This document shows, piece after piece, positions 38,284-54,300 of a stretch of DNA of 54,300 nucleotides; position 1 is the first letter of the stretch, and each line of letters starts with the position of its first letter. A program made the translations under genes and the position numbers. The notes below the pieces were generated by a model. It made no database searches. It saw only the letters and a list, made by a program, of their open reading frames with translations, and was not told where the DNA came from. Where the stretch lies: positions 1 through 54,300 of IMG/VR virus record IMGVR_UViG_3300005290_000037; one strand, given 5' to 3'. This DNA comes from a virus.

Positions 38284-38347
38284 TTTCCAGCAGGCGGGGA
38301 AGGTCCGTCCGCCGAAGACGCGGGCGAGGGGTGGCGCCTCATGCTGA
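38258..38347 (+). CDS. Possible 29-residue protein
   Basis: MALHVLVGDFQQAGKVRPPKTRARGGASC, overlapping the zinc gene upstream and the methyltransferase start downstream. It reads as protein-like (strand then basic tail) and fills the gap between those genes, but has no clear ribosome site. It may be a coincidence. Confidence 0.35.
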   Translation: MALHVLVGDFQQAGKVRPPKTRARGGASC

Positions 38348-39993
38348 TCCAAGCGGATGCCCGATCCCTACCGTTACGGGATGGGTGCGTCGATTGCTGC
38401 GTGACGTCACCGCCGTATTTCGGCTTGCGGGATTACGGGGTGCGTACCCAAATCGGCCTCGAAGGCACACCGGAAGCCTATATCGCCTCGATTTGCTCGG
38501 TATTCAGGGAAATTCGACGCGTACTTAAGGACGAGGGTACGGCATGGCTGAATCTCGGGGATGGTTTCGGCACCGTTGGGAATAGGAATGGTTTAGATGC
38601 GTCCACCCTCGGTGGAAGCAAGACGTATGGACGTGGCTGTGATGCTGAACGTCCCGATCGAATCGTGGATCTTGGCGTGAGAGCGAAGAATCTACTCGGC
38701 ATCCCGTGGCGCGTCGCGCTGGCGCTGCAAGCGGACGGCTGGTACCTCCGCTCCGACATCATCTGGAGTAAACCCAATCCGATGCCGGAGAGCGTTCAAG
38801 GAACGCATTATTCTAGGCATCTAGTTACGGTAGATGAATATGAGAGATTGTCTGGTTTGCGGTACCTCTGCGAGTGTGCCGGGGACGACTGGGCCGGCGA
38901 CGTGCCCCCGCTGTCGGAGGGCCAAATATCTCATCGCAAAGCGCCGCTATCAGCAGAGTGCGAAGGGGAAAGCTACCGCGCGTCTGCGCGAGGAACGTGC
39001 CGATGTGCGCGAAAAGCGACGGGTGTTCTCAGCGTCACAACAAGGCCAACAGAACAACAAGAAATATCGCCAGACACCGAAGGGGCAGGCGGTCGGTCGA
39101 AAGCGGGCGGCGAATTATCGATCTCGGCGGAAGAATGCCGAGGGAATACTGACGGCTCAGGATTGGCTGACGATTCTCGAGCAGCACAAGTATCGGTGCT
39201 ATTACTGCCGAAAGCGCAAGATAAAACTAACACTCGATCATGTCATCCCGCTCAGCAAGGGCGGCAGGAACTCGCCAGAGAACATCGTTCCAGCGTGTCA
39301 GTCGTGCAACTGCGCGAAGCGGGACAAGATGATTCTTCTCTGCTAGTCGGATGCCCAGGCTGCGATAAGTGTATTGGGCATCATGGCTACACATTCCATC
39401 TGTCGGCAGGCCGGCCGACGAAGGCGCATGAGTATCTGTTCCTGCTGACCAAAAGCGAGAAGTACTACTACGACCAAGCCTCGATCTTCGAGCCGTACGC
39501 CGAGAGTACGTTGCGTGAAGTCGAAGACGGATACGACGGACTCGGCCTGAAGGATTACGCGGCGGCTGGCGTCCAGAACCCCAGCGACACCAAGCGTCGC
39601 ATCATCGATAGCATCAATAAAAAACGCAGCAGTTACCGGCCCGGGTCCGCGTCGAACATGAACAGCGGTGAACATGTAAAGAAATCCGATGCGGGCCTGC
39701 CACTACGAGAAGGTGGACGCAACAAGCGTACCGTCTGGACGATTCCCACGATGCCCTACGCCGGCGCGCACTTCGCCACCATGCCAGAGAAGTTAGTCGA
39801 GCCCTGCATCCTGGCTGGGTGTCCAATGGGCGGGCTCGTGCTCGATCCGTTCAGTGGTTCAGGAACGGTGCTGGCCGTGGCAGAACGACTCGGACGGCGC
39901 GGGGTCGGCGTGGATCTTAATCCGGCCTATCACGAACTCGCGAAGGTTCGCACGGCGCAGCGTGGCTTGAGATTCGGCGAGGCCGCAGTATGA
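38341..39993 (+). CDS. DNA methyltransferase (N4/N6 class) containing a nested gene
   Basis: 550 aa, long for the family. Motif IV TSPPYFGLRDYG is early, followed by SDIIWSKPNPMPESV; the SAM motif I LVLDPFSGSGTVLAVAERLGRRGVGVDL is near the end. That IV-then-I order and the SPPY sequence fit an N4-cytosine or beta-class amino-methyltransferase. Residues about 165-330 are not family-like: their DNA encodes an HNH nuclease in another frame (38834-39346). The domain resumes at CPGCDKCIGHHGYTFHLSAGRPTKAHEYLF. No matching restriction enzyme was found, so it may shield phage DNA from host restriction. Confidence 0.85.
   Translation: MLIQADARSLPLRDGCVDCCVTSPPYFGLRDYGVRTQIGLEGTPEAYIASICSVFREIRRVLKDEGTAWLNLGDGFGTVGNRNGLDASTLGGSKTYGRGCDAERPDRIVDLGVRAKNLLGIPWRVALALQADGWYLRSDIIWSKPNPMPESVQGTHYSRHLVTVDEYERLSGLRYLCECAGDDWAGDVPPLSEGQISHRKAPLSAECEGESYRASARGTCRCARKATGVLSVTTRPTEQQEISPDTEGAGGRSKAGGELSISAEECRGNTDGSGLADDSRAAQVSVLLLPKAQDKTNTRSCHPAQQGRQELAREHRSSVSVVQLREAGQDDSSLLVGCPGCDKCIGHHGYTFHLSAGRPTKAHEYLFLLTKSEKYYYDQASIFEPYAESTLREVEDGYDGLGLKDYAAAGVQNPSDTKRRIIDSINKKRSSYRPGSASNMNSGEHVKKSDAGLPLREGGRNKRTVWTIPTMPYAGAHFATMPEKLVEPCILAGCPMGGLVLDPFSGSGTVLAVAERLGRRGVGVDLNPAYHELAKVRTAQRGLRFGEAAV
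38834..39346 (+). CDS. HNH endonuclease nested inside the methyltransferase gene
   Basis: 170 aa, wholly inside the methyltransferase gene in the +1 frame relative to it. N-terminal zinc ribbon (CLVCG ... CPRCRR), a Lys/Arg-rich DNA-binding stretch, and a clean HNH site: YRCYYCRKRKIKLTLDHVIPLSKGGRNSPENIVPACQSCNCAKRDK. ATG 38834 or 38840 could start it. Unlike a plain insertion, the methyltransferase frame stays open through all 171 codons, so both frames may be used. Its insertion point is where the methyltransferase carries a variable zinc-knuckle loop. Confidence 0.85.
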   Translation: MNMRDCLVCGTSASVPGTTGPATCPRCRRAKYLIAKRRYQQSAKGKATARLREERADVREKRRVFSASQQGQQNNKKYRQTPKGQAVGRKRAANYRSRRKNAEGILTAQDWLTILEQHKYRCYYCRKRKIKLTLDHVIPLSKGGRNSPENIVPACQSCNCAKRDKMILLC

Positions 39994-40611: not shown

Positions 40612-40899
40612 ATGAAACCAGTGTGTGTGCCTTGCCAGCGGTTTTTCAGGCCAGAGCGGAACGGCTACTACTTTATCGAGGGGATGCCCACACAAGGGCG
40701 CCCATTGCCAGGCACTCAAGAGCCTCACCATTGGCAACCTTACAAGCTTTGGGTTGGTGACCTCTGGCAATGTGACGGCTGCGGCGCGCAGATCGTGAGC
40801 GGTGTTGGATCTCGACCACTCGGCGAGCATTACGAGTCAGATTTCGCTGAGCAGGTCACACGAACTGGCGCCTCGCAATTACAGGTCAATGATTGTTAG
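40612..40899 (+). CDS. Conserved phage zinc protein
   Basis: 95 aa with a purine-rich ribosome site (GGGGTGAAAAC). CVPCQRFF and CDGCGAQI give two CxxC zinc pairs around a Trp-rich centre (EPHHWQPYKLWVGDLWQC). The same arrangement recurs in many environmental phages, but I know no function. Its end (LQVNDC) is 96 bp from the TnpB stop and marks the right edge of that mobile unit. Confidence 0.65.
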   Translation: MKPVCVPCQRFFRPERNGYYFIEGMPTQGRPLPGTQEPHHWQPYKLWVGDLWQCDGCGAQIVSGVGSRPLGEHYESDFAEQVTRTGASQLQVNDC

Positions 40900-41014
40900 G
40901 TTGGGTAGGCCCCCGGCCGCCCGAAGGGGTAGCCCCGTGAAAGTCCGAAGGGGTGAGGTAAACGGCTCTACGGCCAAGGCCGATAGCTTTCCGCCTAGCT
41001 CGCTGTAGCGAGCT
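40900..41014 (-). ncRNA. Candidate omega-RNA and right end of the TnpB element
   Basis: Downstream of tnpB on the minus strand, partly inside its last codons. Stem AGCTCGCT (40997-41004) with AGCGAGCT (41007-41014); GGGG-TAG-CCCC (40926-40936); and the repeat CCGAAGGGGT at 40921-40930 and 40945-40954. TnpB omega-RNAs characteristically span the tnpB 3' end and finish at the element's right edge, where the guide begins. The boundary is probably near 40900-40906. It cannot be placed exactly by eye. Confidence 0.65.
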
Positions 41015-42083
41015 GGCAGGTCTGAGGCGGGCTTACGAGCCGCCCAAGCCTTGAGAGATTCAAGGCAGCGTTGAAATCAGCGTTCGTCGAGTAGCCACAA
41101 TGCACACACCGGAAAAAGGCTTGATCTCGTCGATTGGCTTTCTCGCAATGACCGCACGCGCTACAGGTGCGGCTCGTGTTGCGGGGATCGACCAACGCGA
41201 CTGGAACGCCGGAGAGTGTAGCTTTGTACTCGATAAACGCGCGCAGTTGATAGAACGCCCAGCCGGAGTGCTTGGCGCGGTGCTTCCGCCTAACCGTTGT
41301 CCGCGATCGGATGTGCGTCAGGTCTTCCAACGCAATACCTCGCTTCGTGTCTTTAGCGGTAGTGACGATCTGCTTACTGATGCAGTGGTTCTGGTGGCGT
41401 CGAAAGCGGGCCTCTCGGCCGGCCAGATTCCTCAGTCGTTTCTTGGCGCCTCGCGTTCCTTTGCGTTGGAGGCTTCGCCGGTTCCTATGGTGGCGTCGCC
41501 GCACACGTTCGACTGTTGTTCCGCTGTGCGTCGTACCGTCGCTGTCGGTTGCCAAGTTGACGATACCCAAGTCAATGCCGAGAAAATCGGACGGAGTGAT
41601 AGGGGCACCGTCAGGAACCACGATACTCGCGTACAGATAGAACTTCCCGTCTCTGAGGACGAGATCGCATTGTCCTTTCAGGCGGTCGAATCGCGCCCGT
41701 TGATACTCGCCGAACATCAACGGAACGAGCTGTCGGCCATCCAGGGTCAACAGGCTTACGGTGTCCATGCCTTTGAAGGACATCAACCGCTCGTCAAGCG
41801 TGATTGCGCCGTCAGGTCGAAATTTCGGACAGACGGTCTTGTCTCGCGCGAAGCATTCGACGGCCTTTCCGATGGCGCGCACAGCCATCTGGCTCGACAA
41901 ACCGAATCGTTTCCGCAATTCGTAGTAGACGAGTTTGTGAATGCTCGGCTGACTGCGTACGCCAGCCTGAAAGCCTGCCCTAGCCGCATAAGTGGCCGCA
42001 GCGTTGAAGGCGCGCATCGTGGCCCGCAGTTGCGACGATTGAATAACTGTCGGCAGAAGCCGCAATTGCAGCGTCAGTATCAA
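40995..42083 (-). CDS. tnpB: TnpB, RNA-guided nuclease (IS605/IS1341 type), orphan
   Basis: 362 aa, TTG start. All three RuvC catalytic residues are present: D in FLGIDLGIVNLATD, E in GIALEDLTHIRSR and D in CGYSTNADFNAALNLSR, plus the four-Cys zinc knuckle CSACGHCEKANRRDQAFFRCVHC. It is therefore likely active as an omega-RNA-guided DNA nuclease, the ancestor type of Cas12. No TnpA transposase is nearby, so the unit would need one from elsewhere. Coding strand is opposite to the surrounding operon. The left end with its hairpin follows at 42084-42119. Confidence 0.93.
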   Translation of the reverse strand: MILTLQLRLLPTVIQSSQLRATMRAFNAAATYAARAGFQAGVRSQPSIHKLVYYELRKRFGLSSQMAVRAIGKAVECFARDKTVCPKFRPDGAITLDERLMSFKGMDTVSLLTLDGRQLVPLMFGEYQRARFDRLKGQCDLVLRDGKFYLYASIVVPDGAPITPSDFLGIDLGIVNLATDSDGTTHSGTTVERVRRRHHRNRRSLQRKGTRGAKKRLRNLAGREARFRRHQNHCISKQIVTTAKDTKRGIALEDLTHIRSRTTVRRKHRAKHSGWAFYQLRAFIEYKATLSGVPVALVDPRNTSRTCSACGHCEKANRRDQAFFRCVHCGYSTNADFNAALNLSRLGRLVSPPQTCQLATAS

Positions 42084-42119
42084 GGCTTACAGTGTAGGAT
42101 AGATTCTATCCGTAATCAA
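42084..42119 (-). mobile_element. Left end of TnpB element with hairpin and TAM-like site
   Basis: GGATAGATTCTATCC (42097-42111) is a 7-bp inverted repeat of the type recognised at IS605 ends. Outside it, TTGAT on the minus strand (42115-42119) matches the TAM of ISDra2-type elements, the expected left flank. With the right end near 40900, the element is about 1.2 kb. Insertion is between the zinc protein (40612-40899) and the gene at 42134. Confidence 0.55.
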
Positions 42120-42133
42120 TCTAGGCGGGCGCT

Positions 42134-42397
42134 ATGAGCCGCAAAAAGAAACAACCCGACCCTGACGTGATTCGCTTAACCAACCTGAGTGCCAAGGTGG
42201 TTTCGAGTTTCACGATTACCAACGTCAGTGAGGCCGACATCCGGATGCTGCATGAGGGCCGCGTGCCTGACTGGATCATCCAGACAGCGGATTATTACTT
42301 GCGCGACAACCCGAAGCCATCGGACATCGATCCGGCGTTCTTCAAGGCGCGGGAAGAAGAACAGGCCGCCGACGCGGTAGCACGGGACGTGGCGTGA
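42134..42397 (+). CDS. Small protein, unknown
   Basis: 87 aa. Lys-rich start (MSRKKKQPDPDVIRL), then VVSSFTITNVSEADIRMLHEGRVPDWIIQTADYYLRD and an acidic end. It is the first gene after the TnpB unit, whose left end is 14 bp upstream. No recognised family. Confidence 0.6.
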   Translation: MSRKKKQPDPDVIRLTNLSAKVVSSFTITNVSEADIRMLHEGRVPDWIIQTADYYLRDNPKPSDIDPAFFKAREEEQAADAVARDVA

Positions 42398-54253: not shown

Positions 54254-54287
54254 ACGCAAAGTGTTTCAGGTCAAGGCCGTCCCAAAC
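54254..54287. repeat. Right copy of terminal direct overlap
   Basis: Exact copy of 1-34, preceded by six G (54248-54253). This is the assembly overlap that closes the circle. Confidence 0.9.
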
Positions 54288-54300
54288 AGATCGGAAGAGC
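54288..54300 (+). other. Illumina adapter residue (assembly artefact)
   Basis: AGATCGGAAGAGC, the first 13 bases of the TruSeq adapter, exactly at the end of the sequence and directly after the 34-bp overlap, where the two copies first diverge. It is library-derived and should be trimmed. Confidence 0.95.

What the first reader, a model, noticed from the sequence alone, without database searches (positions are those of the whole stretch)
40900..42119. Orphan phage TnpB with intact RuvC triad and candidate omega-RNA
TnpB is intact (D, E and D plus the zinc knuckle), its 3' end overlaps a stem-rich stretch typical of omega-RNA, and the left end has a 7-bp hairpin next to a TTGAT TAM-like site. 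No TnpA is present. The unit lies on the opposite strand, between two intact phage genes. The predicted guide is the sequence beyond the right end near 40900, which in this family equals the flank of the empty site. A phage-borne TnpB could drive its own retention by cutting genomes that lack it, or attack rival phages or plasmids.
Basis: partly seen in the sequence, partly recalled or inferred. Interest (0 to 1): 0.78.

Follow-up and report, generated by a model that had tools for sequence, protein, structure and literature searches.

The report
Immobile phage TnpB with guide RNA
A bacterial virus carries an intact RNA-guided DNA-cutting enzyme of a known transposon family, with its guide RNA but without the transposon's left end, so it probably can no longer jump and may survive by cutting sister viruses that lack it.

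Summary
An intact tnpB (40995-42083, minus strand, DED triad, four zinc cysteines, dN/dS about 0.11 against its closest relative) lies between tailed-phage genes, with no TnpA. A covariance model built from 34 relatives finds its omega-RNA at 41050-40958. The RNA scaffold ends at GTTTAC, position 40958. So the guide starts at 40957 (CTCACCCCTTCGGACT), not near 40900.

The "TTGAT TAM plus hairpin" is misread. TTGATT-N17-TACACT matches the family's conserved leaderless promoter. The real left-end hairpin, present in most relatives, is absent, so the copy is probably not mobilisable. Intact relatives show the family TAM is TCAY, the complement of an RTGA start codon. Here CTCAT is the complement of the start of gene 42134. 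Joining the flanks there puts a ribosome-binding site before the ATG, a plausible empty site that equals TAM plus guide.

Left-end loss is scattered over about 16 changes on the tree, and the nuclease residues are intact in all 19 left-end-less copies.

Best explanation: an immobilised IS200/IS605 (IS1341-type) nuclease that persists by cutting empty alleles (homing). A relic without function is the main rival. No close empty-site phage was found.

The parts
40995..42083 (-). tnpB, 362 aa, TTG start; RuvC D171/E253/D336 and zinc cysteines C307, C310, C326, C329 intact
   Evidence: comparative promoter analysis; identical hexamer in L003
42091..42096 (-). -10 hexamer TACACT, 7 nt before the start codon (leaderless, as in relatives)
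   Evidence: 8 of 12 consensus positions, so the stand-alone scan does not report it
40958..41050 (-). omega-RNA scaffold, overlapping the 3' end of tnpB
   Evidence: covariance model from 34 relatives, 27.7 bits, E 6e-6, only hit in the window; structure
41031..41036 (-). GTAAGC, 5' strand of the omega-RNA pseudoknot, in the loop of stem 1
   Evidence: family helix 99% paired, four of six pairs change on both sides
40958..40963 (-). GTTTAC, 3' strand of the pseudoknot and right end of the element
40938..40957 (-). predicted guide CTCACCCCTTCGGACTTTCA (first 16-20 nt beyond the right end)
   Evidence: right-end boundary; guide length by analogy with ISDra2 (PMC8612924)
42134..42138 (-). CTCAT, inferred TAM and left insertion boundary, complement of the start (ATGAG) of gene 42134
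   Evidence: family TAM TCAY from intact left ends; flank joining; inferred
42120..42133 (-). 14-nt remnant between the inferred TAM and the -35 box where relatives carry the left-end hairpin; now holds a weak ribosome-binding site for gene 42134
   Evidence: no left-end model hit; SD energy -6.2 kcal/mol; inferred
40948..40957 (+). AAGGGGTGAG, ribosome-binding site that would precede ATG 42134 in the empty site
   Evidence: -8.0 kcal/mol, best 2% of window positions
40612..40899 (+). upstream phage gene, 95 aa, homologues in other phages
42134..42397 (+). downstream phage ORF, 87 aa, no relatives found; the element sits between its inferred ribosome-binding site and start codon

Best explanation
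An IS200/IS605-family (IS1341-type) element inserted in a phage at a CTCAT site, between the ribosome-binding site and the start codon of gene 42134. It later lost its left end. What remains is a leaderless promoter, an intact TnpB nuclease, an intact omega-RNA and a 16-20 nt guide read from the flank beyond 40958. Without the left-end hairpin and TnpA it should no longer transpose. Because the guide plus CTCAT equals the reconstructed empty site, TnpB should cut phage genomes that lack the insert, and repair from the TnpB-bearing genome copies it in, as a homing endonuclease does. Shown: intact protein and residues, omega-RNA scaffold with family pseudoknot, right-end boundary, absent left end, absent TnpA. 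Supported by comparison: promoter, TAM family TCAY. Inferred: the exact left boundary, expression, cleavage and homing.
For: Intact ORF and triad, and purifying selection against L035 (dN/dS 0.131/1.145 by NG86). Cas12f/TnpB fold. Omega-RNA found by a model built without this sequence or L035. Pseudoknot helix 99% paired with changes on both sides. Right-end boundary shared by independent insertions. Left-end model hits most relatives but not here. TAM TCAY in 51 of 52 intact left ends scored. Flank joining gives a -8.0 kcal/mol ribosome-binding site before ATG 42134. Intact relatives whose TCAT starts an ORF show the same effect (mean -7.2 against -3.2 in controls, p 1e-4). Left-end loss needs about 16 changes on the tree, and all 19 left-end-less copies keep DED and CCCC. 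TnpB-driven spread of insertion sequences by a gene-drive effect is reported for plasmids (PMC11870625).
Against: No real empty-site phage was found, so the empty site is reconstructed, not observed. No expression data. The promoter scores 8 of 12 and is not reported by a plain scan. Ribosome-binding-site spacing in the joined site is tight. The omega-RNA score is among the lower ones of the family (27.7 bits). A recently immobilised copy that is still intact would look the same.
Confidence: 0.55

Rival explanations
1. A decaying relic: the element lost its left end by chance or because that restored translation of gene 42134, and tnpB with its omega-RNA is intact only because the loss is recent. 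It has no selected function in the phage.
For: Left-end loss is scattered over the tree. A left-end-less copy with stop codons exists (L044). The deletion leaves a usable ribosome-binding site for gene 42134.
Against: 18 of 19 left-end-less copies have open frames and all keep the catalytic residues; dN/dS about 0.11 against L035, though part of that branch predates the loss.
Confidence: 0.33
2. A phage-borne interference weapon that cuts rival phages, plasmids or host loci matching the guide.
For: An active TnpB can interfere with plasmids (ISDra2, PMC8612924).
Against: The guide 18-mer has no exact match in IMG/VR and the 20-mer has none elsewhere in the window with up to 3 mismatches. One 14-nt match in L138 lacks the TAM and the 20-nt guide does not match there. 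The guide is just the insertion flank.
Confidence: 0.06
3. A still-mobile element moved in trans by a host Y1 transposase.
For: The right end is intact, and IS1341-type elements are thought to rely on TnpA in trans (general knowledge, not tested here).
Against: The left-end hairpin that relatives carry is absent.
Confidence: 0.04
4. A nuclease-dead RNA-guided regulator of the TldR kind.
For: TldRs are phage-borne TnpB derivatives (PMC13418256).
Against: All three RuvC acidic residues are present and aligned.
Confidence: 0.02

Closest known systems
ISDra2 TnpB (IS200/IS605), PDB 8H1J, 8BF8, 8EXA
   Same: RuvC triad and zinc ribbon, guide RNA overlapping the 3' end of tnpB, guide taken from the flank beyond the right end
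   Different: ISDra2 has TnpA, both ends and a TTGAT TAM (PMC8612924); here no TnpA, no left end, inferred TAM CTCAT, weak sequence similarity (phmmer 7.4e-7)
IS1341-type elements (tnpB without tnpA); closest copy L035, 81% identical, in another viral contig
   Same: Same TnpB clade, promoter layout, omega-RNA and GTTTAC right end
   Different: L035 keeps the left-end hairpin after a CTCAT TAM; the window has lost it
Cas12f (AsCas12f, OsCas12f)
   Same: Best fold and sequence matches among solved structures
   Different: No CRISPR array seen at this locus; single omega-RNA guide
TldR phage-borne RNA-guided repressors
   Same: Immobilised TnpB derivative in a phage with its guide RNA
   Different: TldR has an inactivated RuvC; here it is intact
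Free-standing phage homing endonucleases (HNH, GIY-YIG)
   Same: Predicted logic: cut the empty allele, spread by repair
   Different: Target set by an RNA guide rather than by protein contacts; homing not demonstrated

Membership tests
IS200/IS605 superfamily, TnpB of IS1341 type | TnpB/Cas12f domain with D-E-D triad and four-cysteine zinc ribbon | tested here: met
IS200/IS605 superfamily, TnpB of IS1341 type | omega-RNA overlapping the 3' end of tnpB and ending at the right end | tested here: met
   boundary
IS200/IS605 superfamily, TnpB of IS1341 type | no tnpA inside the element (IS1341 type) | tested here: met
IS200/IS605 superfamily, TnpB of IS1341 type | left end with subterminal hairpin next to the TAM | tested here: not met
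   it is therefore a derivative, not a complete mobile element
IS200/IS605 superfamily, TnpB of IS1341 type | insertion directly 3' of the family TAM (TCAY) | tested here: inconclusive
   CTCAT at 42138-42134 fits the TAM and gives a ribosome-binding site on joining, but no empty site was found
IS200/IS605 superfamily, TnpB of IS1341 type | RNA-guided, TAM-dependent DNA cleavage | not testable with these tools
   needs biochemistry
TldR | inactivated RuvC | tested here: not met
   D171, E253, D336 present
Type V-F CRISPR-Cas (Cas12f) | adjacent CRISPR array | tested here: not met
   repeat search of 40850-42200 gives no array, only one 24-nt pair at 71% identity beside short two-copy matches; the whole window was not searched for arrays
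Homing endonuclease | target equals the insert-free allele | tested here: inconclusive
   guide plus CTCAT equals the reconstructed empty site; no real empty allele found
Homing endonuclease | super-Mendelian inheritance in co-infection | not testable with these tools
   needs a co-infection experiment

The most novel reading that the evidence does not exclude
Left-end-less TnpB units in phages are a recurrent class of RNA-guided homing endonucleases. Transposition has been lost many times independently, while promoter, nuclease, omega-RNA and a guide against the insert-free allele are kept. Because the family TAM (TCAY) is the complement of a start codon, their targets are often ribosome-binding sites of phage genes.
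Probability: 0.3. Interest if true: 0.72.

Novelty: new member of a known kind. Interest (0 to 1): 0.45.

Why it matters
TnpB is thought to keep its transposon in place after excision. A copy that probably cannot be excised yet keeps an intact nuclease and guide separates that role from plain homing, and makes a direct test possible in phage co-infection. The comparison also gives a testable TAM (TCAY) and a leaderless promoter for an uncharacterised TnpB clade, and suggests that these elements often land between the ribosome-binding site and the start codon.

Tried and rejected
TTGAT as TAM: rejected, it is the -35 hexamer. Guide near 40900: rejected, the right end is 40958. Omega-RNA through Rfam: no family reached its threshold anywhere in the window. 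Empty site through relatives of the two flanking genes: the 95-aa gene has relatives with different downstream sequence, the 87-aa gene has none. Relatives through the neighbouring methyltransferase: 80 loci, none syntenic across the site. Nearby phage DNA in GenBank: none. Guide targets: none elsewhere within 3 mismatches in the window, none exact (18-mer) in IMG/VR; a 14-nt match in L138 was rejected because the TAM is absent and the full guide does not match. My first idea that left-end loss marks most phage copies was too strong: many viral copies keep the left end, and L042 has one about 1.9 kb upstream. The viral against cellular difference (18 of 71 against 1 of 20, one-sided p 0.039) is weak, partly judged by eye and open to sampling bias.

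Full report
Setting. The window is one IMG/VR virus record of 54,300 bases with terminase, portal, major head and tail proteins, so a tailed phage. Its first 34 bases recur near the end, followed only by AGATCGGAAGAGC, which I recognise as Illumina adapter sequence. The genome is therefore probably circularly complete, with a short sequencing artefact at the 3' end.

The protein. The ORF 40995-42083 (minus, TTG start, 362 aa) matches Pfam Cas12f1-like_TNB and OrfB_IS605. Among 15 relatives D171, E253 and D336 are aligned and conserved, and the window has all four zinc-ribbon cysteines. AlphaFold2 gives mean pLDDT 85, and Foldseek ranks Cas12f first, with ISFba1 and ISDra2 TnpB further down. 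Against L035, the closest copy (81% identical, another viral contig), NG86 gives dN 0.131 and dS 1.145. There is no Y1 transposase in the record.

The right end and the guide. Relatives share a structure at the 3' end of tnpB: a stem whose loop pairs with the last six bases of the element. The pairing varies across the family (GTCAAC/GTTGAC, GTCAGA/TCTGAC, GTCATG/CATGAC, GTAAGC/GCTTAC), and the window has GTAAGC/GTTTAC with one G-U pair. On 34 sequences the helix is 99% paired, four of six pairs have changes on both sides, and slid controls lose the signal. The ends were picked partly by this pairing, so these counts lean towards it. An independent check is that homology between copies in different sites stops there (L042/L046 exactly, L012 against L013 or L024 within a base, L021/L033/L034 within one or two bases). 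A covariance model built without the window or L035 finds the window's omega-RNA at 41050-40958, E 6e-6, its only hit. The guide therefore starts at 40957.

The left side. Sixteen intact relatives define a left end: TCAY, then about 12 to 25 nt, then a hairpin framed by GGAAnCC and GGAGGAA. A model of it hits most relatives. In the window it gives nothing next to tnpB, even with filters off. What lies there is TTGATT-N17-TACACT, seven bases before the start codon. The same leaderless layout recurs in the family (for example TTGACA-N18-TATAAT in L038), and the cellular copy L003 has the same two hexamers besides its own complete left end. So the TTGAT is a -35 box. Alone the hexamers match only 8 of 12 positions (one search reports nothing); the case rests on comparison.

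The empty site. TCAY is the complement of RTGA. In the window the gene facing away from tnpB starts ATGAG at 42134, giving CTCAT on the minus strand, the same TAM as L035 and L138. Joining the flanks at 42134 and 40957 gives CCGAAGGGGTGAG^ATGAGCCGC, with an anti-Shine-Dalgarno pairing of -8.0 kcal/mol, in the best 2% of window positions. Intact relatives support the logic: where TCAT starts an ORF of 50 or more codons, the right flank supplies a ribosome-binding site (n = 12, mean -7.2 against -3.2 further out in the same flanks, p 1e-4). TAMs that start such ORFs are only slightly commoner than background (25 of 51, about 49%, against 39%), so this is a tendency, not a rule. The element thus probably entered between ribosome-binding site and start codon, and its guide equals the empty site. 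The present upstream sequence still offers a weaker site (-6.2).

How common is left-end loss? Of 91 copies on one tree, 19 lack a visible left end (model plus inspection by eye). They are scattered (16 changes, about as many as shuffled labels), all 19 keep DED and CCCC, and only L044 has stop codons. Nearly all of those searched keep a recognisable omega-RNA. Loss is therefore recurrent and does not go with loss of the nuclease. It is somewhat commoner in viral contigs (18 of 71 against 1 of 20, one-sided p 0.039), but sampling differed.

Mechanism. Peel-and-paste transposition needs both ends and TnpA, as established for ISDra2 and IS608 (PMC8612924 and general knowledge). The window lacks one end and TnpA, so retention after excision, the accepted role of TnpB, has little object here. 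What the parts still allow is cutting of insert-free genomes: transcription from the leaderless promoter, processing of the 3' region into omega-RNA, recognition of CTCAT plus guide, a double-strand break, and repair from a TnpB-bearing genome. A gene-drive effect of TnpB has been reported for plasmids (PMC11870625). All steps after the sequence anatomy are inferred. The main rival is a recent relic; present data do not separate the two.

Known kinds. It is an IS1341-type TnpB by protein and RNA, but not a complete element, because the left end was tested and not met. It is not TldR (RuvC intact; PMC13418256). No CRISPR array is visible at the locus, unlike the tnpB-CRISPR loci described in Thermus Lalka phages (PMC11437467).

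Noticed in passing
38341-39993 and 38834-39346, plus strand: An HNH endonuclease ORF (170 aa) lies in another frame inside a DNA methyltransferase gene. Methyltransferases without it align from about residue 152 directly to 358, so the gene carries an insert of about 205 codons that stays open in the host frame. L057 (HNH 62% identical) has the same nested arrangement and L058 a related one. No Rfam intron was found.
   Followed up: partly
54254-54300: The first 34 bases of the record recur at 54254-54287, followed by AGATCGGAAGAGC: the genome is probably circular, and the last 13 bases look like Illumina adapter left in the assembly.
   Followed up: yes
40903-40950: Two imperfect 24-nt direct repeats (71% identical) just beyond the right end of the element, overlapping the guide.
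   Followed up: no
L042 and L046: Two copies of one element in a single viral contig, 95% identical at the ends; L042 has its left end about 1.9 kb upstream of tnpB, so it carries extra sequence that L046 lacks.
   Followed up: no
L197, L198, L200: tnpB without a visible left end whose start overlaps or abuts the stop codon of the gene before it, as if read in a phage operon.
   Followed up: no
family-wide, L002-L206: tnpB of this clade appears to be transcribed leaderless: a sigma-70-type -10 hexamer often ends 6-7 nt before the start codon.
   Followed up: partly
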